Positions 5,592-61,773 of a DNA stretch of 64,000 bases are shown piece by piece. The stretch comes from Candidatus Equimonas faecalis. GTDB taxonomy: Bacteria > Bacteroidota > Bacteroidia > Bacteroidales > Bacteroidaceae. How positions within the stretch are numbered: position 1 is the first letter of the stretch; each line of letters opens with the position of its first letter. The notes under the pieces are model-generated. The model searched no databases. It was not told where the DNA came from and saw nothing but the letters and a program-made list of their open reading frames with translations. Position numbers and translations under genes: made by a program. The stretch spans positions 60,630-124,629 of the forward strand of contig JAGHRT010000033.1 in NCBI GenBank assembly GCA_018066245.1, written 5' to 3'.

Positions 5592-5680
5592 TCCTACCCT
5601 ATACGAGAGTTTCCGCTGTCGTATAGGGTAGTTGCTTTTATCGTATAGAGTAGTTTCTCTTACTGTATAGGGTAGTTGCA
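5592..5680. repeat. Modular 22-bp repeat array (4 units)
   Basis: TATA heads at 5600, 5622, 5644, 5666 (spacing exactly 22): TATACGAGAGTTTCCGCTGTCG / TATAGGGTAGTTGCTTTTATCG / TATAGAGTAGTTTCTCTTACTG / TATAGGGTAGTTGC. Confidence 0.9.
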
Positions 5681-9383: not shown

Positions 9384-10811
9384 TTATTTGGCTTGGATAA
9401 TCTGTGTGAGTTGGGGGCAATAGTCGTCGGCATCGCCTGCGCCGATGAGCATCAGCACGTCGAAGTCTTCGCCCTCTACGATGGCGGGGAGCTCTTCCTT
9501 GCGGGCCATGCGGCAGGGCATGGAGGGTCGCAGCTCGCGGCGGATGATGTCGGAGGTAACGCCGGGTATGGGGAGCTCGCGGGCGGGATAGATGTCGAGG
9601 AGTATGAGGTCGTCGAGACCGGACAGGGCCTCGGCAAATTCGCGGTAGAAGTCGCGTGTGCGGGTGTAGAGGTGGGGCTGGAAGATGCCGGTGATGCGGC
9701 GGCCTGTGAATACTTCGCGTATGCTTTCCACGCTGTGGCGTATTTCCTCGGGGTGGTGGGCATAGTCGGAGAGGAAGACGTGGCGGTCGTCGCGCAGCTT
9801 GAAGTCGAAGCGGCGCTCCACGCCTGCGAATGTGCGCATGGCCTGTCGGATTTCGTCGGGCGTGGCTCCTGCGATTTGGGCCAGGGCGATGGCGGCTATG
9901 CCGTTTTCGATGTTGATGCTCACGGGTACGCCCAGCTCGATGTCGGCTATGTGGCCCAGGGGGCTGACGAGGTCGAAGAGGATGCGGCCTCCGCCTATGC
10001 GCTCGTGCTCGGCGTGGAAGTCGCCGGCGTTGCGGCTGTAGGACCACACGGTTACGCCCTGCCGGGGGCGGGCCTGCATCTTCAGCCCTGTGTGCTGGAT
10101 GAGGTAGCCGCCGGGCTGTATGAGACTGGTGTAGTGGGCGAAGCTCTCAAGGTAGGCTTCCTCGGTACCGTAGATGTCGAGGTGGTCGGCATCGGTGGCC
10201 GTGACGACGGTGGCGTAGGGCCGCAGGTGGTGGAAGGAACGGTCGAACTCGTCGGCTTCTATGACGACGCAGTCGGTTGCAGGGTCGGCGCTCTGGGGCT
10301 TTATGAGGTAGTTGGTGCCGTAGTTCTTCGTGATGCCGCCGAGGAAGGCGTTGCAGCCCACATGGCTCTGATGGAGCAGATGGGCGGCCATGGAGGTGGT
10401 GGTGGTCTTGCCGTGGGTGCCGGCCACGCACAGGCCGCGCATCCGGCGCGTCAGGGTGCCGAGCACTTGGGCGCGTTTCTGTATGTCGAAGCCGTGGGTG
10501 CGGAAGTATTGCAGTTCGCTGTGGCTGTCGGGAATGGCGGGCGTATAGACCACCAGCGTGCGCGTGGGGTCGAGGCAGGCTTGGGGGATGAGGCTGACGC
10601 TGTCGGTGTAGTGTATCAGTGCGCCTTCTTCCACGAGGGCGCGGGTAAGGGGCGTTTCTGTACGGTCGTAGCCGCCCACCGTATAGCCGGCGTGCAGGAA
10701 GTAGCGCACCAGTGCGCTCATGCCTATACCGCCCGCGCCTACGAAATAGACGGCGCCAGGGCTCTCGGCGGCTGCGGCGGCAGTTGTTTGCGGAATGGTA
10801 TTTTCTGTCAT
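9384..10811 (-). CDS. murC: UDP-N-acetylmuramate--L-alanine ligase
   Basis: GAGGIGMSALVRYFL, VAGTHGKTTTTSM, SDYAHHPEEI. Confidence 0.97.
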   Translation of the reverse strand: MTENTIPQTTAAAAAESPGAVYFVGAGGIGMSALVRYFLHAGYTVGGYDRTETPLTRALVEEGALIHYTDSVSLIPQACLDPTRTLVVYTPAIPDSHSELQYFRTHGFDIQKRAQVLGTLTRRMRGLCVAGTHGKTTTTSMAAHLLHQSHVGCNAFLGGITKNYGTNYLIKPQSADPATDCVVIEADEFDRSFHHLRPYATVVTATDADHLDIYGTEEAYLESFAHYTSLIQPGGYLIQHTGLKMQARPRQGVTVWSYSRNAGDFHAEHERIGGGRILFDLVSPLGHIADIELGVPVSINIENGIAAIALAQIAGATPDEIRQAMRTFAGVERRFDFKLRDDRHVFLSDYAHHPEEIRHSVESIREVFTGRRITGIFQPHLYTRTRDFYREFAEALSGLDDLILLDIYPARELPIPGVTSDIIRRELRPSMPCRMARKEELPAIVEGEDFDVLMLIGAGDADDYCPQLTQIIQAK

Positions 10812-10930
10812 ATAGGGGAGTTCTGCGTAGTCTATAGGAGAGTTTTCACTGGGCCGCCGATAGGAAAAACCAGTCCGCCGATAGTTTTCACCGGCCTTAG
10901 GGAGCGGTTTTTCCGGCCTTTGGGAGCGGC
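10811..10930. repeat. Modular 21/22-bp repeat array (6 units) filling the murG-murC gap
   Basis: Heads at 10811, 10833, 10855, 10876, 10897, 10919: TATAGGGGAG, TATAGGAGAG, CGCCGATAGG, CGCCGATAGT, TTAGGGAGCGG, TTTGGGAGCGG; spacing 22,22,21,21,22. Confidence 0.9.
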
Positions 10931-12319: not shown

Positions 12320-12440
12320 CGCCGATGCCACTGCGCGTCCCTACGGCCGTTTTCCCTCGCCTATGGGATAGCGTTTTCTACCCTATAGGATGGTTTTTCC
12401 TACCGTATAGGATGGTTTTTCCTACCGTATAGGACAGTTC
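12320..12440. repeat. Modular repeat array (4 clear 22-bp units plus 2 possible in-phase 21-bp units)
   Basis: Heads at 12362, 12384, 12406, 12428 (TATGGGATAG, TATAGGATGG x2, TATAGGACAG); in-phase CGCCGATG at 12320 and CTACGGCCGTTTTCCC at 12341. Confidence 0.85.
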
Positions 12441-15957: not shown

Positions 15958-16080
15958 CGTAGGACTGTCTTCCCTACCCTATACGATGGCTTTTCCTACT
16001 CTATACGGGAGTTCTTACTACTCTATACAAGAGTTTTTACTACTCTATACAGGAGTTTTCCGTGGCTTACAGAAAGGCTG
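15958..16080. repeat. Modular 22-bp repeat array (4 clear + 2 degenerate units)
   Basis: TATA heads at 15980, 16002, 16024, 16046, degenerate TACAGAAAGG at 16068 and CGTAGGACTG at 15958; all spaced 22. Confidence 0.9.
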
Positions 16081-19199: not shown

Positions 19200-19220
19200 C
19201 GTCGGGAGGTTGGAAATTAT

Positions 19221-19298
19221 CCCGCCGATAGTCGTTCCTATCGGCGGGATAGTGCGTCGTAGTCTATAGGATAGGTTTCAGGAGTCTATAGGGTAGAT
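19221..19298. repeat. Modular repeat array with inverted CGCCGATAG/CTATCGGCG pair, filling an intergenic gap
   Basis: CCCGCCGATAGTCGTTCCTATCGGCGGGATAG..., then TATAGGATAG at 19265 and TATAGGGTAG at 19287. Confidence 0.88.
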
Positions 19299-25237: not shown

Positions 25238-25751
25238 CCCTACTTACTTAACTTAAAAACTAATGAAAAATATACTTACTAACCTTTATTTCGTTTTTGT
25301 TCTGCGGCAGTGCGCCGCGGTTGGAAGTGGAAGAGTGTCTAGTTTAGTTTTGCTGGAAGACCTCGTAGGAGTTTTTCGTTTTTGTGTTGGTTAGAGGAAT
25401 CCGTTGTGTGTCTCTTTCTGTTTCCGAGTGCAAAAGTACGAGTTATTTTCATACCTACCAAATAAAATCCAAAAAGATTTGCATATTTTTTGTATATATG
25501 TGCGATTTTATAGGATTATGCTATGCAGAAATGCCAAATACGATAGAAATAATCGGATTTTAGGGTTTATTTAGTGTACACAAGCGCCGATTTTCCGAAT
25601 TCAGGGATTACCGAAAGCGAAGGAAGGGGGACTTTTGTATGTCGGCAGGGTATTTTACACGCACAGCAGGAAAGGTTGCGACTTATATATATAATAATGT
25701 ATCCCGCAACACTCCTATGGTCTTTCCTGCCTGTTCTCCCCCGTCGTAGTC

Positions 25752-25835
25752 CGCCGAGAATTTCGCGTAAGCCGCCGAGAGTTGCGCGTAGTCCGCCGAG
25801 AGTTTCGCGTAAGCCGCCGAGAGTGCGGAGAGAGG
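25752..25835. repeat. 21-bp CGCCGAGA repeat array (4 units)
   Basis: CGCCGA heads at 25752, 25773, 25794, 25815: units CGCCGAGAATTTCGCGTAAGC / CGCCGAGAGTTGCGCGTAGTC and variants. Confidence 0.92.
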
Positions 25836-25990
25836 GAGAAGGGGGTACGACGGCAAGCGACCCGGAAGGGCAAATCAGGCTGACAGCAATATCGCATTGC
25901 CGCAAAAGCGGGAAATGGAAGCTTGATTCCGGGAACAAGTAAGCCAGCCGCTTTACGGGGCGACTGGCTACTCATTATTATATATATATT

Positions 25991-26160
25991 AGGTTATGCG
26001 CGTATATGGATTAAGTTATGCGCATATATGGATTAAGTTATGCGCGTATATGGATTAAGCTATGCGCGTATATGGATTAAGCTATGCGCGTATATGGATT
26101 AGGGTATGCGCGTATATGGATTAGGTTATGCGCGTATATGGAGAGGCTATGCGCACGGGG
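25991..26160. repeat. 22-bp tandem repeat, about 8 copies
   Basis: TATGCGCGTATATGGATTA(A/G)(G)(T/C); TATGCG at 25995, 26017, 26039, 26061, 26083, 26105, 26127, 26148. Confidence 0.97.
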
Positions 26161-28892: not shown

Positions 28893-31800
28893 ATGAATAA
28901 GCCTGCCAACCCGTACTGCGTCCTCTTGCTGGCGTGCCTTCTTTCCCTGCTTTCCGGCGGCCTCGCGGCGGCCTCCGAAGTCCCTGTCTGTAAGGCAAGT
29001 GCCGCTCCCCTGCCGAGTGCCCGTTCCTATCCTATAGGAGCGTTTTCCCTATCGGCGGACTACGAAAAACTGTCGGCGGACTACGGAAGCGGCTCGGCGG
29101 ACTACGACATCCGCTGGCAGCGGGTGGAAAAAGCCCTGGCCGACGACCTGCCCGCCACCGCCCTGAAAGAACTCACGGCCATACGCCAGCGTGCCGCCCG
29201 CGAGGGCGATATGCCGCAGTTGTGCCGCGCCCTTTTTCAGTCCCTGCATTGCAGCGTGGAGATTTCCCCCGATTCGCTCCAGCCCTCCCTCGATGCCATA
29301 CGCCAGGCCCTTGATGCCGAACAGCGGCCCGTGCAGCGTGCCGTCTATCAGCACGTCCTCGGCCTCTGTCAGAACGATACGGCCCTCCTGCGTGCCTCCT
29401 TTGCCGACCTGCCCCTCCTGGCAGAAGCCCGTGCCGCCGACTATCTGCCTTTGATTGAGACCGGTGCCGACTCCCGGTGGCTCTATGCCGACGACCTGCT
29501 CAGTCTGTTCCTCTCCGACGTGGCCGCGCCCTCCTATGCCGCCGTCATCCGCGAGGCTCAGAGCCTTTACGCCCGGCAGGGCCGCACCGCTGCCTCCCTC
29601 CTGCTGGCCGAGCGCCTCAACCTGCCCGACAGCACACTCTATCCCCTTTGGCGCAATGCCGTGGATGCCGATGCTTCGCTCCGCCGCGTCAGTCCCATTA
29701 TGAACTACTTGGCCGGCGTGGAGCAGGCCACCCTCTCCATCGACTGCCTCACCGCCGGACTGTTGCGGCCGGGCCAGAAGGCCACCTTCGTCGCCCATGC
29801 CCGCAACCTGCGGCAGGCCACGTTCACCTTCGCCGGCCAGACGCACACCCTGCGCTTCGCCGACACGCCCGCATGGCAGACCCGTACCGACACCCTCACC
29901 CTGACGGCCCCCAAGGCCGGCTCTTATGAAGCCTGCCTCGCCGCCGCCGGTCTCTCCGACACCGAAAACGTGCAGATTTCCTCGGTGAAACCGCTCTTTT
30001 TCGGCCTTCCCGACGGACGCTGCCGCCTTGCCATCGTCGATGCGGCGACAGGGCGGATGCTCCCCCAGCCCTCGCTAGTGCGCAAGGCGAGGAAGAGCAA
30101 GGCAACGGTAACCTTCAAGCCCGAGGCCGACGGCTTCATCTACCTCAGCCGTGCCGACTTCAACCCCTCGGGGCAGACCTGCGACTTCTACCCCCGAGCC
30201 GGCTCCGACACCTACCACCCCGCCCTCGCATCGTGGAACTTCTCCGCAGGCTACTATAATGAAGGCCGCCCCATCAGCGAGACCCTGGCCCACATAGCCA
30301 CCGACCGCAACATCTACCGCCCCGGGCAGCAGGTGCAGGTCGCCGTGATGGCCTACCGCCGTGCCGACGACGACTACCGGGCAGCAGCCGGCCAACGCCT
30401 CGTGCTGCGCCTCGTGGACAGCAACCGCCGCGACGTGGCCTCCGACACGCTGACCACCGACACCCTCGGCACGGCAGCCGCCACCTTCGCCCTGCCGAGC
30501 GTTTGCCTCCCCGGAAGCTTCTGCATTTGCGCCGAAGGAGACGAGGGCATCGGTGCGCGGCAGTATATCCGCGTAGAAGAATACAAGCGTCCCACCTTCC
30601 TGCTGAAAACCGACGGTTTCATCGGAACATTTTCCCTTGGCGACACGGTTGTCGTCAGGGGGCGTGCCGTAACCTACTCGGGCGTGCCTTTGGCCGACAC
30701 CCCCGTTACGACCGACCAGGGCGACACCCTCACCACCGATGCCGACGGGCGTTTTGCCTTCCCCGTGGAGGTGAAGCGCCAGAAGGCGATGCCGTGGTTC
30801 TGGGGCAGGCAGAGCCTGACGCTCAAGGCCGTGGCGGCCAACGGCGAGACGGCTGAGGCCACCGTACACTGGAGTATTCGGACCGACCCTAAGGAGAGTG
30901 AAAACAAGTCCGCCGACAGTTTTTCCTACTCCGCCGACAGTTCGCACAAGTCCGCCGATAGGAAAACCCTGCCCTACTGGGAGAAAATCTCCTGCTCCGC
31001 CGACGGCTCCGAAGCCGTAGTCAGCATAGGCTCCTGCCATAGGCCCGTGTGGGCTTTCCTCGACGTAGTGAGCGGCAGTCGGGTGATAGAGCAGCGCATC
31101 GTTGAGTTCACCGACAGCTTCCGCCACACCCTGCGCTACCGTCCTGAATGGGGCGACGGCGCCGTGCTCCACCTCGCTTTCGTCAAGGAGGGCGAGTTGC
31201 ATGAGGCCCGCGCCGAAGTGGTGCGCCCCCGCCCCGACAAGCGCCTCCTGCTGCGCTGGGAAACCTTCCGCTCCGACCTCCAGCCGGGAGCCCGGGAGGA
31301 GTGGATGCTCTCCGTGCGCCATCCCGACGGTTCGCCCGCCCAGGCCCTCGTAACCGCCCGCCTCTACGATGCCGCGCTGGACGCGTTCACCTCCAACGAC
31401 TGGGGCTTCTCCCTCGACTTCCGCCGCAATCTTCCCTCGGCCTACTGGCACACCTCTTCGTGGGACTTCCCCAGCCAATACCTCAGCGCCAAGCTGCCCG
31501 CCTATAAGCCCCTCAGCCTTACCCGATGGCGCAGCGGCCTGTTCGCTTACGTCGGTGCCGACTTGTTCAGCCCCCGCCGGCTCTACGCCAACCGCCGCTT
31601 GAAGGGGGCCGCCGATTTGGAGGAGGCGGCCTTGGCCGGCGGCCCGCTGACCAAGGCCATGGCCACCGCCCCCACCGCTATGGCCAACGGGGCCATGGCT
31701 GCGAAAGACGAGGCCGCCGACATTGAGAGCCAGCGGGCGGAAAGTGCCGATGAAACCGTGGGAAGCGTGCGCGAAAACTTCGATGAAACCGCGTTCTTTA

Positions 31801-34061
31801 TGCCTGCGCTCCGATCCGACGCTGAAGGGCGCGTAGCCCTCCGCTTCACGTTGCCCGAGAGCCTGACGACGTGGCACTTCACCGCCCTTGCGCACGATGC
31901 CGCGCTGAACTACGGTTTCCTGCGCGATACAATCGTGGCCCGCAAGCAACTGATGGCGGAAATCAGCGCCCCGCGCTTCCTGCGCCACGGCGACCGGACG
32001 GAAATTCCCGTAACGCTCACCAACCTCACCCCTGCGGCGCAGGCCTGCCGCCTCGCCTTCAGCATCGGCGACAGCACCGCCACGCACACCCTGGCCCTGG
32101 CTCCGAACGAACGCCGCACCCTCACGTTCCCCTACACCGTAGAGGCGGAGGCCGGCGGCTGGGCCACGCTCCGCGTAAGGCTGGCCTCCGATGAATTTGC
32201 CGACGGCGAGGAACGCCTGGTGCCCCTCCTGTCGAACCTTGTGGAGCTGACGCGCAGCGTGCCCTACTCCCTCGTGAAACCGGGCCGCCGCACGCTGGAC
32301 CTCACGCCCCTCTGGCAGGAACTCCCCTATGCCCGCCGAGCCACGTTCACCACGGAGCAGACGGCCAACCCCGCCTGGTATGTGGCCGAAGCCCTGACTC
32401 CGATGCTCCAGGCCCGAGCCGAGAGCGCGTCAAGCTGGGCCGAAAGGCTCTACGCCCTGAAGACGGCACAGTACGTCAGGACTTATCTGCCTGATTTTAA
32501 GGATACGGACAACTACCCTAAGGAGAGTGAAAACTGTCGGCGGGATAGTGCGAACTGTCGGCGGACTACGGAAAACTGTCGGCGGACTACGGAAAACTGT
32601 CGGCGGACTAATTTTGAGGCTCCCGCCGAGGGTGCCGATTCCGGCTCCGACAGTCCCTTCGACCGCAACGCCGACCTCCGCCAGACCCTGCTGGAGGAAA
32701 CGCCCTGGCTCCTTCGAGCCTACTCCGAGGCGGAGCGGCGGAACCGCATGGCCGAGTTGCTGGACCCCACCGCCCTGAGCGTGTATGCCACTTGGGCGAC
32801 CGACGAACTCACCCGCCTGCAAACCGGCACGGGTGCATGGAGCTGGTACAAGGGAATGGAGGACAGCCCGTGGATAACCCTTGAGGTGTGTACGCTACTC
32901 GCCCGCCTGCAAGTGCTCACGGGGAAGGACAACCGCCTGGCCGCCCTGCTCGACAAGGCACTCCCCTACCTGAAAGGCGTGGTCCACCGCGACGTGCAGG
33001 AAATGAAGCGCGAGGAAAAACGCCACGGCGTGAAGTACGGCCTGTCCGACCGCCACTGCCGCTTCCTCTACCTCTGCGCACTCCTCTCCCAGCCCAAGAA
33101 TGCCGACATGGCCTACCTGCTCGAAAAACTCCAGAAGGCCAACCACGAACTCAGCATGTACGGCAAAGCCGGGGCGGCGGTCATACTCGCGGCCTACGGC
33201 CAGGAGAAACGAGCCAACCTCCTGTTGCGCAGCCTCCTGGAGCACACCGTCGTGTCGGAGGAGATGGGCCGCTCATTCGACACCGACCGAGCCCTGTCCG
33301 GCTGGTACGCCTACAAAATCCCCACCCAGACGTTCGCCGTGGAGGCCCTGCAACGCCTCAAGCCAGAGGAGGAGCGCGAAGCCCTGCAGCAGATGCGCCT
33401 CTGGCTCCTCCAGAGCAAACGCACCCAGCAATGGATGAGCAGCGAGGCTACGGCAGATGCCATCTACGCCGTGATGACCGACACCCCGGGCGGCCTGCGT
33501 CCCACCGAGGCAGGGGCAGGCTACACGCGCCACACCGAGACCGACGCCGCCCGTATGGGACAGCCGTCGCTCACGGTGGAGAACACGGACGGCGGCCTGC
33601 TCTGGGGCGCCGCCTACGTGCAGTACTTGCTGCCCGCCGACAAGGCCGTGGCCACGCAAAGCGGCCTGACGCTGACGCGCCGGCTGGAGGTGGAGCGTCC
33701 CGAAGGCTGGGTGGAGACCGACGGCCTGAGAGTGGGCGACCGCATACGGCTGAGCTACACGCTCCGTGCCGAGCGCGACATGGACTTCGTGAGCGTGCGG
33801 GCGCAGCGGGCAGCCTGTATGGAGCCTCGGCGGCCCCTGTCGGGCTACGACTGGCTGACGCGGGCCTACCGAGCCGTGCGCGACCAGCGCTCCGACTTCA
33901 GCTTTGAGCATCTTGCCAAGGGCACGCACACGTTCACCGAGGAGATGACGCTCCAGCGGGCTGGCCGCTTCTCGCTGGGCGTGGCGAGTGCCGAGTGCGT
34001 GTATGCGCCGGAATATCGGGCTTCCACTGCCAACCAGACCATAGAGGTGCTGCCGCAATAG
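28893..34061 (+). CDS. Alpha-2-macroglobulin family protein (MG2-type, no obvious thioester motif)
   Basis: HIATDRNIYRPGQQVQVAVMAYR; FFMPALRSDAEGRVALRFTLPESLTTWHFTALAHD; C-terminal alpha-helical region. Confidence 0.93.
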   Translation: MNKPANPYCVLLLACLLSLLSGGLAAASEVPVCKASAAPLPSARSYPIGAFSLSADYEKLSADYGSGSADYDIRWQRVEKALADDLPATALKELTAIRQRAAREGDMPQLCRALFQSLHCSVEISPDSLQPSLDAIRQALDAEQRPVQRAVYQHVLGLCQNDTALLRASFADLPLLAEARAADYLPLIETGADSRWLYADDLLSLFLSDVAAPSYAAVIREAQSLYARQGRTAASLLLAERLNLPDSTLYPLWRNAVDADASLRRVSPIMNYLAGVEQATLSIDCLTAGLLRPGQKATFVAHARNLRQATFTFAGQTHTLRFADTPAWQTRTDTLTLTAPKAGSYEACLAAAGLSDTENVQISSVKPLFFGLPDGRCRLAIVDAATGRMLPQPSLVRKARKSKATVTFKPEADGFIYLSRADFNPSGQTCDFYPRAGSDTYHPALASWNFSAGYYNEGRPISETLAHIATDRNIYRPGQQVQVAVMAYRRADDDYRAAAGQRLVLRLVDSNRRDVASDTLTTDTLGTAAATFALPSVCLPGSFCICAEGDEGIGARQYIRVEEYKRPTFLLKTDGFIGTFSLGDTVVVRGRAVTYSGVPLADTPVTTDQGDTLTTDADGRFAFPVEVKRQKAMPWFWGRQSLTLKAVAANGETAEATVHWSIRTDPKESENKSADSFSYSADSSHKSADRKTLPYWEKISCSADGSEAVVSIGSCHRPVWAFLDVVSGSRVIEQRIVEFTDSFRHTLRYRPEWGDGAVLHLAFVKEGELHEARAEVVRPRPDKRLLLRWETFRSDLQPGAREEWMLSVRHPDGSPAQALVTARLYDAALDAFTSNDWGFSLDFRRNLPSAYWHTSSWDFPSQYLSAKLPAYKPLSLTRWRSGLFAYVGADLFSPRRLYANRRLKGAADLEEAALAGGPLTKAMATAPTAMANGAMAAKDEAADIESQRAESADETVGSVRENFDETAFFMPALRSDAEGRVALRFTLPESLTTWHFTALAHDAALNYGFLRDTIVARKQLMAEISAPRFLRHGDRTEIPVTLTNLTPAAQACRLAFSIGDSTATHTLALAPNERRTLTFPYTVEAEAGGWATLRVRLASDEFADGEERLVPLLSNLVELTRSVPYSLVKPGRRTLDLTPLWQELPYARRATFTTEQTANPAWYVAEALTPMLQARAESASSWAERLYALKTAQYVRTYLPDFKDTDNYPKESENCRRDSANCRRTTENCRRTTENCRRTNFEAPAEGADSGSDSPFDRNADLRQTLLEETPWLLRAYSEAERRNRMAELLDPTALSVYATWATDELTRLQTGTGAWSWYKGMEDSPWITLEVCTLLARLQVLTGKDNRLAALLDKALPYLKGVVHRDVQEMKREEKRHGVKYGLSDRHCRFLYLCALLSQPKNADMAYLLEKLQKANHELSMYGKAGAAVILAAYGQEKRANLLLRSLLEHTVVSEEMGRSFDTDRALSGWYAYKIPTQTFAVEALQRLKPEEEREALQQMRLWLLQSKRTQQWMSSEATADAIYAVMTDTPGGLRPTEAGAGYTRHTETDAARMGQPSLTVENTDGGLLWGAAYVQYLLPADKAVATQSGLTLTRRLEVERPEGWVETDGLRVGDRIRLSYTLRAERDMDFVSVRAQRAACMEPRRPLSGYDWLTRAYRAVRDQRSDFSFEHLAKGTHTFTEEMTLQRAGRFSLGVASAECVYAPEYRASTANQTIEVLPQ
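29024..29108 (+). repeat. In-frame modular array inside A2M-like CDS, after the signal peptide
   Basis: TATAGGAGCGTTTTCC at 29033; CGGCGGACTACG at 29053, 29074, 29095 (21 bp); peptide LSADYEK LSADYGS GSADYDI. Confidence 0.88.
30888..31003 (+). repeat. In-frame modular array inside A2M-like CDS
   Basis: TAAGGAGAG at 30890; CGCCGA at 30911, 30932, 30953 (21 bp each); TACTGGGAG at 30975; further CGCCGACGG at 30998; peptide KESENKS ADSFSYS ADSSHKS ADRKTLP. Confidence 0.93.
32516..32620 (+). repeat. In-frame modular array inside A2M-like CDS, reverse-orientation units
   Basis: TAAGGAGAGTGAAAACTGT at 32519 then CGGCGG at 32538, 32559, 32580, 32601 (21 bp each); peptide KESENCR RDSANCR RTTENCR RTTENCR RTN. 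Confidence 0.95.
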
Positions 34062-34126: not shown

Positions 34127-35413
34127 ATGAAAGAGACTGTGAAGGTACGGCTATTTTTGGCTCTCCTTATGACCGCGAGCGTGCTGACGGCGGCGGCCGA
34201 CGAGTATGGGAGCCTCTGGAAAAAAGCGGGTAAAGCCCAGCGCGACCGCGACACCGAGCGTGCGTGCGAGTATATAGATAAGGTGTTCGACCTCGCCTTG
34301 AAGACCGACAACCCCATAGAACTGACACGAGCCCTCTACGCCTACGACGCACTGGGCGCACGGCTGGGCGCCGTCCACGCCGACGCAGCCGCCGACCGCG
34401 TATGGGAGGCGCGTCTGGCCGAGAGGAATCCGGTGCAGCACGTCCTCTACACGCACATGCTGGGGCGGCTCACGGAAAACGACGACCTGCTGAGGCTCTC
34501 CGTGGCCGACACCGCTTTTCTCAAGGCGCAGAATGCGCGGCACTTGCTCCCCCTGACGAAAGGCTTCAACCTGTTTGAGGTGTTCGACGCCTACCTTAGC
34601 GAAAACCGCCCGCAGCGCCCCTCCGACGCCCCGTTAAGAGGAGAAGGCACAGCTCCTAAGGAGAGCGAAAACAAGTCCGCCGACAGTTCGCACAAGTCCG
34701 CCGATAGGAAAAACTATCCTATAGGAGAGGAAAAACCACCCTATACGACAGGACAGACCCTCCCCAAGGAGGCTTCCGCCGAACCCGTAGTGCCGCCCAC
34801 GCTCAAGCAGGACTGGGAAGCCGCAGCCCTCTCCGGAAACTACACGGCCTGCGTGTTCTCCGTGCCGGGCGGCGTGTCGCGCATCTCACTCTTTGAGAGC
34901 GAGACAGGCAACCCCGTCAAGCAATGGCGGCTCCACCGCAGCGACGGACGCGGCCAGGAACAAGACTTCACTGCCGATGGCAACGGCAACGTCTGGCAGC
35001 GGCCCCAGCAAATCCACGACTACGACGGCCTGTACGACTGGAGCCTCCAGCCCTGCCTCGCCGCCGAGGGCAAGGCCAACACCCTAAAGGCCATACATTT
35101 CCACCAGGGCAACGGATGGGGAACCGTGGCCACCGCCGACCCGGCCCACCTCCGCGTGGAAGTGCAGCGCCACGACGCGGCACAAGGCTCCTACAGCGTG
35201 CTCGTCCGCGCTCCCCACCGCAACATCACCCTGCTGCGCGACATCACCGCAGGCGGCCTGCTGGTGGAGCAAAGGCAGTATCAGTTCTCCGACTTTATAC
35301 ACTTCAACCTGCAATGGCGGGACTCCTACGGCGAGGAAGCCCTTGCGACATTCGCCTACGTGCTGAAAGGCAAGCTCTACGTTGCGCAGCTGCGCATCGC
35401 CCGCCCGAAATAA
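34127..35413 (+). CDS. Secreted protein, short partial paralog of the upstream A2M-like protein
   Basis: Signal peptide; DEYGSLWKKAGKAQRDRDTERACEYIDKV resembles A2M YDIRWQRVEKALADDLPATALKELTAI; C-terminus VEQRQYQFSDFIHFNLQWRDSYGEEALATFAYVLKGKLYVAQLRIARPK resembles A2M IEQRIVEFTDSFRHTLRYRPEWGDGAVLHLAFVKEGELHEARAEVVRPRP. Confidence 0.75.
   Translation: MKETVKVRLFLALLMTASVLTAAADEYGSLWKKAGKAQRDRDTERACEYIDKVFDLALKTDNPIELTRALYAYDALGARLGAVHADAAADRVWEARLAERNPVQHVLYTHMLGRLTENDDLLRLSVADTAFLKAQNARHLLPLTKGFNLFEVFDAYLSENRPQRPSDAPLRGEGTAPKESENKSADSSHKSADRKNYPIGEEKPPYTTGQTLPKEASAEPVVPPTLKQDWEAAALSGNYTACVFSVPGGVSRISLFESETGNPVKQWRLHRSDGRGQEQDFTADGNGNVWQRPQQIHDYDGLYDWSLQPCLAAEGKANTLKAIHFHQGNGWGTVATADPAHLRVEVQRHDAAQGSYSVLVRAPHRNITLLRDITAGGLLVEQRQYQFSDFIHFNLQWRDSYGEEALATFAYVLKGKLYVAQLRIARPK
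34655..34760 (+). repeat. In-frame modular array inside 34127..35413
   Basis: TAAGGAGAG at 34657, CGCCGA at 34678 and 34699, TATAGGAGAGG at 34720, TATACGACAGG at 34742; peptide KESENKS ADSSHKS ADRKNYPIGEEKPPYTTGQ. Confidence 0.92.
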
Positions 35414-36939: not shown

Positions 36940-37007
36940 AAACTCAGGGCACGTGCCCCTCAGCAGGCCGGGCCGCAAGCTCGGCAGGCCAGTTCTCTTT
37001 CCTAGTC

Positions 37008-37091
37008 TATACACTGGTTTTCTCTAGTCTATACTCTAGTTTTTCCTAGTCTATACTCTAGAAAAAACGACTCTATAGGACAGTAATTCCT
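37008..37091. repeat. Modular 22-bp array between sufD and sufS
   Basis: TATA heads at 37008, 37030, 37052, 37074: TATACACTGGTTTTCTCTAGTC / TATACTCTAGTTTTTCCTAGTC / TATACTCTAGAAAAAACGACTC / TATAGGACAG. Confidence 0.92.
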
Positions 37092-39331: not shown

Positions 39332-39416
39332 CGAAAACCATCCTATAGGGCAGAGAAAATTAGTCCGCCGATAGAAAAAACTGTCGGCGGACTAATTTTT
39401 CCTATCGGCGGACTTG
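39332..39416. repeat. Modular array forming a long hairpin between convergent genes
   Basis: TATAGGGCAG at 39344, CGCCGATAG at 39366, inverted CGGCGG at 39385 and 39406; AAAATTAGTCCGCCGATAG-AAAAAA-CTGTCGGCGGACTAATTTTT. Confidence 0.9.
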
Positions 39417-41697: not shown

Positions 41698-41776
41698 ATC
41701 CTAGAGGGTAGGAAAAATTAGTCCGCCGATAGAAAAAATTAGTCCGCCGATAGTTTTTCCTATCGGCGGACTTGTG
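41698..41776. repeat. Modular array with terminator-like hairpin
   Basis: TAGAGGGTAGGAAAAATTAGTC / CGCCGATAGAAAAAATTAGTC (41724) / CGCCGATAG (41745); perfect 12-bp stem GTCCGCCGATAG-TTTTTC-CTATCGGCGGAC. Confidence 0.92.
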
Positions 41777-45763: not shown

Positions 45764-45803
45764 CCCGTGCCGCCGCGCCCGTCCCTACGGTTCCGCCCCC
45801 TGT

Positions 45804-45905
45804 CCCGCCGATGGCTTTTCCTATCGGCGGGATAGTTTTTACTGCCGTATAGGATAGTTTTCCTTACCCTATAGGATAGTTTTTCCTGTCGTATAGGATA
45901 GTTAC
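45804..45905. repeat. Modular repeat array with inverted CGCCGAT pair
   Basis: CCCGCCGATGGCTTTTCCTATCGGCGGG, then TATAGGATAG at 45848, 45870, 45892 (22 bp). Confidence 0.93.
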
Positions 45906-49630: not shown

Positions 49631-49647
49631 TTTAAGGCAGCCGTTAC

Positions 49648-49750
49648 TACTCTATAGGACAGCATTTCCTGCCGTATAGAGTAGTTCATCTTACTCTATA
49701 GAACAGTTTTCCCTACCCTATAGAGTAGTTTTTCGCAGTCACGGGACAGG
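49648..49750. repeat. Modular 22-bp repeat array (4-5 units)
   Basis: TATA heads at 49653, 49675, 49697, 49719, degenerate ACGGGACAGG at 49741; all spaced 22. Confidence 0.93.
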
Positions 49751-55825: not shown

Positions 55826-55928
55826 TTAGTCTATAGGACAGTTTTCCCTACCGTATAGGAAAGGAAAAACCAGTGTATAGGACAGTTTTCCCCCGTGTAT
55901 AGGATAGGAAAATCCGGTGTATAAGGCC
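55826..55928. repeat. Modular 22-bp array with alternating core orientation (5 units)
   Basis: TATA heads at 55832, 55854, 55876, 55898, 55920; TATAGGACAGTTTTCCCTACCG / TATAGGAAAGGAAAAACCAGTG / TATAGGACAGTTTTCCCCCGTG / TATAGGATAGGAAAATCCGGTG / TATAAGG. Confidence 0.95.
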
Positions 55929-56091
55929 GCACAGCCCATCAGCCGGACAGCACAGCGCCCCCCTGCCTCCCAAACCCACACTCTTACGGCGAGGAAGACC
56001 CATCCCTGTGATGGGACTTCCTTGCCGGCAAGAGATATATCCTATTTATAAAACGCGCGTGTACGCACATATAAGACAACAACAACCCGCT

Positions 56092-59796: not shown

Positions 59797-61773
59797 AGAA
59801 TGAATACTGACAGCCGGAGAATTTGTCTGGGAGCAGGCCGGGTGGCCCGTATGCCGAGCCTGACTGCCCTTGTGGCCGGCCTTGTCGCCCTGCTCTGCGG
59901 CACTCCGATGCACGCGGCCGACGACACGCAGCTCTGGGGCTACACCCCTGCCGACTTCTCTGCACTGCAAGCCCACGGCTTCAACCAGCAGAATGTGTTT
60001 GGCGCAGCGGTGCGCCTCACTGTCGATGACATGTTCGACGGCAGCCTTATCACCGGCATCGACGTACCCTTCAACACTGAAGAGGCGTGGGAGGTTACGG
60101 CTTTCGTGGCCTCTGCCGACGACATCGACACCCCCCTGACAAGCACCTTCTCCGACGACGGCACCGCCGTGGGCTACAACACCTACACCTTCTCCCAGCC
60201 CTACCGCCTCCAGAAGGGCAAGGACGTGTACGTGGGCTATACCTTCCGCATCATTTCCACAGCGACAAAGCAGGAGAAGGCACCGATTCTCACTGGCGGC
60301 GCAGCCATGCCGGGCGGCCTCATGGTATATAATAAAAAGGAGTGGACGGACTACTCCGCCGAAGGCTGGGGCAACAGCGGCCTTCAGGTACGTCTCCAAG
60401 GGCTTGTCCTGCCGAGCGATTACGCCGTCATGGGCAAGGCTTGCGACTTCTCGGGCGCCGTCAATTCCTCGGCCACCTGCCAGGTGTTCCTGCACGGCAA
60501 CAGCGCCAACGCCATCCACACGCTGGGCTACAGCGTCAGCCTGGGAGGCCGCACCACCCAAGGCACAGCCAGCGTCAGCGTGCCGGCAGGACTGGCTCAA
60601 CTGGCCACGGTCAGCCTCGCCGTACCCACCCCTGCCGAGGTGGGTACCTATCCCGTCACCGTAACCCTACAGACGGTGAACGGACAGCCCGTGCCGCCCA
60701 CCTCCGCCACCGCCACGGCCACACTCTACACCCGACTCGTGCCACGCTACACGGTGATGGAGGAACAGACCGGCACCGGTTGTATGCACTGCACCCGAGG
60801 ATGGGCCGGCATGGAGTATATGCGGGACCACTACGACCGCTTCATAGCCATCAGCACCCATCACTATAACGCCGAGGATGCCATGTATAACACGGGCTAT
60901 CCCTCCATCGGCCTGAGTTCGGCCCCCTCCTGCATAATCGACCGCAGGACCGAAGCCATCGACCCCCTGTTCGGCTCCAACTCCCAAAGGTATATCATCG
61001 GCGACTTTGAGGACTGCAACGCCCTGGTGTCCCCCGTGGAGGTACGCGTGGCCGGACAGTTGCAGCCCGACGGCCAAAGCGTGGAAGCCACGGCCAGCGT
61101 GGATTTCCTCTACCCCAGCCCGGGCTGTTCCGTGTTCTACGCCATCACGGCCGACGGCCTGACCTGCCCTCCCGATGCCGACGAAAGGACGCGGCGCATG
61201 TGGATGCAGGCCAACATATTCGCCCAGAGCGAAACGCGCGACCACTTCCGGGGCGACGGCTCCAACCCTCTCCGCAACTTCTACGCCGAGTTCGCCAAAG
61301 GAGGCCAGTACGGCAGCACCGAACTCTACGGCCTCGTGTTCAACGACGTAATGATAGGGTGCAGCACCCCTAAGGAGAGTGAAAACTACTCCGCCGAGAG
61401 TTCCCACAAGTCCGCCGACAGTTTTTCCTACTCCGCCGACAGTAAAAACCACTCCGCCGCCCTGCCCGCCGAAGGCAAGGCCGGCACCACCGCGCAGCAC
61501 GCCTGCACCGTCCCCGTCAGCTGCAGCCCCTACTGCCGAGCCGCCATCCAGTACGACCGGCTCAACATCGTGGCCCTCGTCATCGACCGGGAAGGACACG
61601 TGGCCAATGCAGCCCGCGCACGCGTAGAAGTGCCCGAAGGCATCGGCACGGTGCTCACGCCCTCGCAGCCATGCCCCCTCGCCGGTTCCTACGGCCTCGA
61701 CGGGCGCATCAGCCGGCCCGTCCCTGCCACCCGCACCCTGCACATCATCAACGGTAAGAAAATACTTAACTGA
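59791..61773 (+). CDS. Secreted thioredoxin-like/Omp28-related protein (paralog 4), interrupted in frame by modular array
   Basis: EEQTGTGCMHCTRGWAGMEYM; C-terminus YGLDGRISRPVPATRTLHIINGKKILN. Confidence 0.8.
   Translation: MRRMNTDSRRICLGAGRVARMPSLTALVAGLVALLCGTPMHAADDTQLWGYTPADFSALQAHGFNQQNVFGAAVRLTVDDMFDGSLITGIDVPFNTEEAWEVTAFVASADDIDTPLTSTFSDDGTAVGYNTYTFSQPYRLQKGKDVYVGYTFRIISTATKQEKAPILTGGAAMPGGLMVYNKKEWTDYSAEGWGNSGLQVRLQGLVLPSDYAVMGKACDFSGAVNSSATCQVFLHGNSANAIHTLGYSVSLGGRTTQGTASVSVPAGLAQLATVSLAVPTPAEVGTYPVTVTLQTVNGQPVPPTSATATATLYTRLVPRYTVMEEQTGTGCMHCTRGWAGMEYMRDHYDRFIAISTHHYNAEDAMYNTGYPSIGLSSAPSCIIDRRTEAIDPLFGSNSQRYIIGDFEDCNALVSPVEVRVAGQLQPDGQSVEATASVDFLYPSPGCSVFYAITADGLTCPPDADERTRRMWMQANIFAQSETRDHFRGDGSNPLRNFYAEFAKGGQYGSTELYGLVFNDVMIGCSTPKESENYSAESSHKSADSFSYSADSKNHSAALPAEGKAGTTAQHACTVPVSCSPYCRAAIQYDRLNIVALVIDREGHVANAARARVEVPEGIGTVLTPSQPCPLAGSYGLDGRISRPVPATRTLHIINGKKILN
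61369..61462 (+). repeat. In-frame modular 21-bp array inside paralog 4
   Basis: TAAGGAGAG at 61371; CGCCGA/CGCC at 61392, 61413, 61434, 61455 (21 bp each); peptide KESENYS AESSHKS ADSFSYS ADSKNHS; absent from paralog 5. Confidence 0.96.

What the first reader, a model, noticed from the sequence alone, without database searches (positions are those of the whole stretch)
55826..55928. Within-unit core flips orientation from unit to unit
In consecutive 22-bp units the head stays TATAGGA but the core alternates: AGTTTTCCC, AGGAAAAAC, AGTTTTCCC, AGGAAAATC. The same GTTTTTCC versus GGAAAAAC choice is seen at 10855/10876, 30911/30953, 34699/34720, 37030/37052 and 41724/41745. Array diversity may thus arise by shuffling or inversion of a short inner core between fixed heads, not just point mutation.
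Basis: partly seen in the sequence, partly recalled or inferred. Interest (0 to 1): 0.82.

Follow-up and report, generated by a model that had tools for sequence, protein, structure and literature searches.

The report
Mosaic 21/22-bp repeat arrays, two-way cores
A gut bacterium's genome is full of short repeat arrays whose six-letter spacers come in two mirror orientations; the orientations are real, but they seem to be inherited by local copying and to be tolerated because they do not change predicted DNA shape, rather than being produced by ongoing flipping.

Summary
The alternation at 55826-55929 is real: heads TATAGGA at 55832/55854/55876/55898 with cores TTTTCC, GAAAAA, TTTTCC, GAAAAT. 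It is part of a genome-wide family of arrays. Each unit is a 16-bp TATA head (22-bp unit) or a 15-bp CCGCCGA head (21-bp unit) plus a strictly 6-nt core. In 0.95 Mb I tabulated 181 arrays and 465 cores. Cores are sharply two-state (pyrimidines per core 0-6: 119, 56, 31, 13, 53, 74, 119) and orientation is free relative to directional heads (53 Y: 48 R). In-place core inversion as the source of diversity is nevertheless not supported. Within arrays, same or near-same cores are in excess (156 vs 67 expected) and inverse pairs are deficient (31 vs 67). For distinctive cores it is 52 versus 1. Orientation is linked to the neighbouring edge base (p = 1e-6). The flagged array is a duplicated 44-bp dimer. 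Arrays are absent from 25 of 25 syntenic sites in a sister species. 21-bp arrays also sit in frame inside genes; pure 22-bp arrays never do. Best reading: young BIME/RPE-like mosaic repeats with orientation-indifferent A-tract spacers.

The parts
55826..55929 (.). Flagged array: five TATA heads, four 6-nt cores (TTTTCC, GAAAAA, TTTTCC, GAAAAT), 22-bp units, intergenic between tandem + strand genes, 50 bp after the stop of the upstream gene
55828..55871 (.). First copy of the 44-bp dimer (Y core + R core)
   Evidence: 44-nt direct repeat
55872..55915 (.). Second copy of the 44-bp dimer, 84% identical to the first
5594..5675 (.). 22-bp array, intergenic
10805..10884 (.). Mixed array, two TATA then two CCGCCGA heads, both core orientations
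12378..12437 (.). 22-bp array, uniform TTTTTC cores
15974..16055 (.). 22-bp array upstream of gyrB; absent at the syntenic place of the sister species
19217..19296 (.). Mixed array with a CCGCCGA/TCGGCGG hairpin pair
25746..25823 (.). 21-bp CCGCCGA array in the gap between called genes
29027..29105 (.). In-frame array inside the alpha-2-macroglobulin-like gene (SLSADYEKLSADYGSGSADY)
30905..30961 (+). In-frame 21-bp array inside the alpha-2-macroglobulin-like gene (KESENKSADSFSYSADSSHKSADRK); insertion absent from the two closest orthologues
32534..32632 (.). In-frame 21-bp array inside the same gene (NCRRTTENCRRTTENCRRT)
34672..34751 (.).
37002..37083 (.). 22-bp array with TTTTTC next to AAAAAA core
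39338..39416 (.). Hairpin-type mixed array between convergent genes
41718..41774 (.). 21-bp array, AAAAAA and TTTTTC cores, ends in an inverted head (hairpin)
45800..45901 (.). Mixed array, uniform pyrimidine-rich cores
49647..49728 (.). 22-bp array with dimer-like higher order
61386..61442 (+). In-frame 21-bp array inside a coding sequence

Best explanation
The flagged site is one of several hundred interspersed mosaic repeat arrays (estimate) in an uncultured, probably horse-gut, Bacteroidaceae genome. An array is a string of head modules: a near-symmetric 16-bp TATA head, or a directional 15-bp CCGCCGA head. The heads are held exactly 6 nt apart, giving units of 22 or 21 bp, about two helical turns. 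Arrays grow by tandem duplication of one or two units, and they stand at sites that are empty in the sister species. The 6-nt core is mostly kept as a homopurine/homopyrimidine A-tract spacer. What is conserved is its length and A-tract character, not which strand carries the purines. Both orientations therefore coexist and spread with their units. The switch at 55826 most likely happened once, and a 44-bp dimer was then copied. The most likely reason orientation is free is that the arrays act at the level of duplex DNA: phased, bent DNA and/or regularly spaced sites for a nucleoid or regulatory protein. Shown by computation: architecture, two-state cores, duplication over inversion, empty sister sites, in-frame insertions, predicted bend insensitive to core flips. 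Inferred: bending or protein binding as the actual role, and the way new arrays are founded.
For: Spacing: core length 6 in 299 of about 316 head-head junctions while adjacent cores share only 0.55 identity and adjacent same-type heads 0.83. Two-state cores and free orientation. Duplication rather than inversion. Orientation linked to the edge base. 0 of 25 syntenic sister sites hold an array; e.g. gap 253 vs 34 bp and 123 vs 7 bp. In-frame insertion in the A2M-like protein absent from orthologues. 21-bp arrays in coding sequence 16 of 32, pure 22-bp arrays 0 of 44, p = 6e-8. Array-bearing gaps: 12 of 18 convergent, 51 of 114 tandem, 11 of 32 divergent; in tandem gaps the array is nearer the upstream stop (median 46 vs 93 bp). 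Wedge-model bend: all cores flipped 1.03 of native, random cores 0.55, letters shuffled 0.83, spacer changed by 3 nt 0.27-0.39. The sister species has the same TATA units with cores in both orientations.
Against: The bend model uses literature wedge parameters recalled from memory. Against a fairer column-permutation null the bend excess is modest (median z 1.27), and any repeat with a ~21-bp period gains bend when repeated. Many cores are not A-tracts (TTCGCA, CATTTG, AAGTTA). No binding protein, transcript or function was tested. Stretches of the genome were chosen near known matches, so counts are a sample and not a census.
Confidence: 0.6

Rival explanations
1. Core orientation is generated by inversion in place, by DNA polymerase template switching across the inverted-repeat heads that flank a core (spacer inversion).
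For: Template switching between inverted repeats is described to give arm homogenisation and complete spacer inversion (PMC8604942). Head pairs in the hairpin order + then - occur 28 times against 3 in the order - then +, and their loops are in both orientations (16 R, 10 Y). TATA heads are near-symmetric.
Against: Inverse cores within arrays are below chance and distinctive cores show 52 direct against 1 inverse pair. Orientation is equally free in direct CCGCCGA arrays, whose cores lack long inverted arms (53:48). Edge bases co-vary with orientation. [quoted passage not shown]
Confidence: 0.2
2. The arrays are REP/REPIN-like mobile palindromes spread by a Y1 (RAYT-type) transposase, and core orientation reflects the strand of insertion.
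For: Three intact Y1_Tnp genes in the genome. REP elements lie mainly downstream of genes and some lie inside genes (PMC3733652). Arrays are species-specific in position.
Against: No array within ~1.2 kb of any of the three Y1 genes. Y1_Tnp genes over the family cut-off occur in 27 of 58 species of the genus, nearly all without these arrays, while the array-bearing sister shows only a weak partial match. Heads carry no constant GTAG or CGTC tag. The sister assembly is only 68% complete.
Confidence: 0.15
3. The arrays are RNA elements, that is terminators or mRNA-stabilising hairpins, with the core as loop or U-tract.
For: Position close after stop codons. Median fold z of arrays with three or more heads is -2.4. 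+ then - head pairs form 13-bp stems with a 6-nt loop.
Against: The flagged array has fold z -0.13 and no terminator-like site. On the coding strand both orientations are common (69 R, 50 Y in tandem gaps). Variable head positions show no compensatory pairing.
Confidence: 0.2
4. There are no two orientations as such, only neutral drift of an AT-rich spacer that happens to be purine- or pyrimidine-rich.
For: Many intermediate or unrelated cores exist.
Against: The pyrimidine count is U-shaped (119, 56, 31, 13, 53, 74, 119), against a binomial expectation peaking at three.
Confidence: 0.05

Closest known systems
BIMEs / REP elements (bacterial interspersed mosaic elements, repetitive extragenic palindromes)
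   Same: Hundreds of short partly palindromic modules combined in mosaic arrays, mainly downstream of genes, in tandem and convergent gaps; mixed orientations (PMC3733652, PMC2817692)
   Different: Two alternative head types at a strict 6-nt spacing with 21/22-bp period; no constant GTAG tag; no transposase gene next to an array; heads in direct as well as inverted order
Rickettsia/Wolbachia palindromic elements (RPE, CGTC-tagged repeats)
   Same: In-frame insertion of the repeat into protein-coding genes as a short extra peptide (PMC3733652)
   Different: Here the insertion is a tandem array of 7-codon units, and mainly the 21-bp type enters genes
Quasipalindrome correction / template-switch spacer inversion
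   Same: Spacer between inverted arms can flip, giving pairs such as gaa/ttc (PMC8604942)
   Different: Direct evidence of flips in place is lacking here; tandem duplication dominates
Helically phased A-tracts / curved DNA of bacterial nucleoids
   Same: A-tracts repeated at multiples of the helical period (PMC3940949)
   Different: Carried by an interspersed mosaic repeat with period of two turns, with sequence-specific heads between the A-tracts

Membership tests
BIME / REP | High-copy interspersed palindromic modules outside genes | tested here: met
   181 arrays in 0.95 Mb of selected stretches; 18 arrays with three or more heads in the 64-kb window; most intergenic
BIME / REP | Module conserved as a palindrome (compensatory changes) | tested here: not met
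   No excess of Watson-Crick pairing at variable head positions; the innermost position is anti-paired (GTATAG / CTATAC)
BIME / REP | GTAG or CGTC tetranucleotide tag at one end | tested here: not met
   Head edges vary (CTA, CTG, TTA, GTA, CAA; TAG, CAG, GAG)
REP/RAYT system | Y1 transposase gene flanked by the repeats | tested here: not met
   Three Y1 genes, no array within about 1.2 kb on the loci read
RPE-like elements | In-frame insertion in coding genes, absent from orthologues | tested here: met
   A2M-like protein, insert missing in L172 and L173; 22 arrays of three or more heads lie in called genes
Template-switch spacer inversion | Units identical except for an exactly inverted spacer, above chance | tested here: not met
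   Within arrays 31 inverse pairs vs 67 expected; distinctive cores 1 vs 4.2
Site-specific invertible switch | Dedicated recombinase and population-level inversion | not testable with these tools
   No reads or strains of the same species held; no recombinase search was made
Curved DNA | Measured anomalous bend | not testable with these tools
   Only a wedge-model calculation

The most novel reading that the evidence does not exclude
A family of mosaic arrays in which length-locked, orientation-indifferent A-tract spacers and interchangeable heads form phased DNA scaffolds, with a frame-compatible 21-bp form that also invades genes. It would be spread by a mechanism that is not RAYT transposition, with occasional spacer inversion at hairpin-ordered heads seeding the two core states.
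Probability: 0.2. Interest if true: 0.7.

Novelty: new variant of a known kind. Interest (0 to 1): 0.42.

Why it matters
The arrays are abundant, positionally young (none of 25 syntenic sister sites holds one), modular and present in genes as well as between them. They offer a natural record of how short interspersed repeats grow, and a natural test of whether a spacer's length and shape matter while its strand does not. A strict 6-nt spacing with free orientation is a clear, testable signature of DNA-level rather than RNA-level action.

Tried and rejected
Exact pattern TATAGGATAGTTTTTCCTA in public genome and viral collections: no hits. Rfam: no family. Palindrome covariation within heads or across cores: absent. 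Terminator and promoter scans and RNA fold of the flagged array: nothing. RAYT link: not supported. Exact insertion boundaries or target duplications from sister alignments: flanks too diverged to resolve. Literature searches for such repeats in Bacteroidales: nothing matching.

Full report
What was checked. The flagged stretch holds four TATAGGA heads exactly 22 bp apart with cores TTTTCC, GAAAAA, TTTTCC and GAAAAT. Four of the five other cited pairs show opposite orientations; 34699/34720 does not (both GGAAAAAC), and three of the five belong to a second unit type with a CCGCCGA head.

What it belongs to. The window lies in a 2.59-Mb draft genome. The nearest named relative by GyrB (93% amino-acid identity) is a Bacteroidaceae MAG from horse faeces, which is the held genome G031/G058 (matching coordinates). 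The genome carries arrays built from two heads: a 16-bp TATA head (22-bp unit; 142 TATA-TATA pairs at lag 22 in 464 kb, 0-9 at most other lags) and a 15-bp CCGCCGA head (21-bp unit). Heads are separated by a core of exactly 6 nt in 299 of about 316 junctions, although adjacent cores share only 55% identity and adjacent same-type heads 83%.

Are the two orientations real? Yes. Across 465 cores the number of pyrimidines is U-shaped: 119, 56, 31, 13, 53, 74, 119 for 0 to 6 (smaller set with binomial expectation). Relative to the directional CCGCCGA heads the orientation is free: 53 Y, 48 R, 22 mixed. Relative to GTATAG/CTATAC-oriented TATA heads it is 28 Y, 18 R, 14 mixed. The sister species also has both states.

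Does inversion of the core make the diversity? The tests say no. Within arrays, same or near-same cores number 156 against 67 expected if cores are shuffled over all units; exact or near inverses number 31 against 67. Restricting to cores that are not pure purine or pure pyrimidine gives 52 direct and one inverse pair. The inverse pair (CAAAAA/TTTTTG at L019:10342) is part of a longer inverted duplication with a ~23-bp stem. Between arrays with matching heads, inverse pairs (570 of 3794, 15.0%) are about as frequent as among random core pairs (14.7%), while direct pairs (829, 21.9%) are more frequent than random (14.3%). In direct CCGCCGA arrays the base after the core depends on orientation (Y: G 25, T 9; R: G 1, T 27; p = 1e-6 with one count per array), which clean inversion between fixed heads would not produce. 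The flagged alternation is a 44-bp dimer copied once. Among 22 arrays with at least four cores only two alternate. Rare past spacer inversion, as described for template switching (PMC8604942), is not excluded, above all at hairpin-ordered heads (28 '+-' against 3 '-+').

How the arrays behave. Of 181 arrays in the sampled own stretches, 25 have both flanks syntenic in the sampled sister DNA, and none of those sister sites holds an array; the sister gap is shorter in 23 of 25 (alignments). The array upstream of gyrB is one example. Arrays are commonest in convergent gaps, then tandem gaps near the upstream stop, then divergent gaps. Three in-frame arrays sit in the alpha-2-macroglobulin-like gene 28893-34061 (Pfam A2M, MG2, bMG10); the one at 30905-30961 is missing from the two closest orthologues. 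Arrays made only of 21-bp units, which are 7 codons, are in coding sequence in 16 of 32 cases, and pure 22-bp arrays in 0 of 44, as expected if frame decides where an array can persist.

Likely working. Spacer length and A-tract character are kept and strand is not. In a wedge-model calculation flipping all cores leaves the predicted bend unchanged (1.03), random cores reduce it to 0.55 and letter shuffling to 0.83, and spacer changes of 3 nt reduce it to 0.27-0.39. This fits a duplex-DNA role, either bent DNA or sites on one helical face. It is a model with parameters recalled from memory, and against a column-permutation null the excess is modest (median z 1.27), so function is inferred. RNA-level roles fit less well at the flagged site (fold z -0.13, no terminator-like site), although arrays in general fold somewhat better than shuffles (median z -2.4).

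Comparison with the known. It works like a BIME or RPE: a mosaic, interspersed, mostly extragenic repeat, some copies in frame in genes (PMC3733652). Membership in the REP/RAYT kind is not shown: no constant tag, no head covariation, no flanking transposase, no match between Y1 genes and arrays across the genus. TATA-type arrays are confined to this genome and G031 among the 58 genomes searched in the genus (113 and 40 triple matches, at most 7 elsewhere, and those 7 are a different repeat); a few CCGCCGA-type arrays occur in G051 and G045.

Limits. Own-genome stretches were chosen near known matches (22-37% of the genome), so densities are not a census; the 64-kb window itself, which was not chosen for arrays by me, holds 19 arrays by the parser, of which 18 have three or more heads. 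No strain-level data of this species were available, so inversion could be tested only within and between arrays of one genome.

Noticed in passing
window 28893-34061: Alpha-2-macroglobulin-like gene carrying three separate in-frame repeat arrays (SADY.., KSADSFSYSADSSHKSADRK, NCRRTTENCRRTTENCRRT), a gene-level record of array invasion.
   Followed up: partly
window 25975-26144: A different, very regular 22-bp tandem array (TATATGGATTAAGTTATGCGCG, 7.4 copies, 93% matches) unlike the mosaic arrays.
   Followed up: no
L058 (G032), L062 (G014), L063 (G015), L060 (G051): Other species of the genus carry intergenic arrays with 21/22-bp period but mostly unrelated units (e.g. GACATATGTGGAAAATAGTTTC, GTATACTTTAGTGCCATTAAAG, GGCTTACGGATTGATTTGCAA), and heptamer-based arrays (CATTGAC/CGTTGAA), suggesting a general process favouring two-turn periods.
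   Followed up: partly
own arrays, e.g. L018:12290, L019:10342, window 39338 and 41718: CCGCCGA heads of opposite orientation almost always come in the order + then - (28 against 3), i.e. as hairpins with the core as loop.
   Followed up: partly
G000:C49:7406, C44:45436, C44:113268 (L044-L046): Three intact Y1 (RAYT-like) transposase genes with no array within about 1.2 kb.
   Followed up: yes
array ends, e.g. window 10805-10930, L019:13580: Arrays often end in degenerate heads such as CCTTAGGG, CCTTTGGG or CATACGACAG, possibly a boundary signal of the founding insertion.
   Followed up: no
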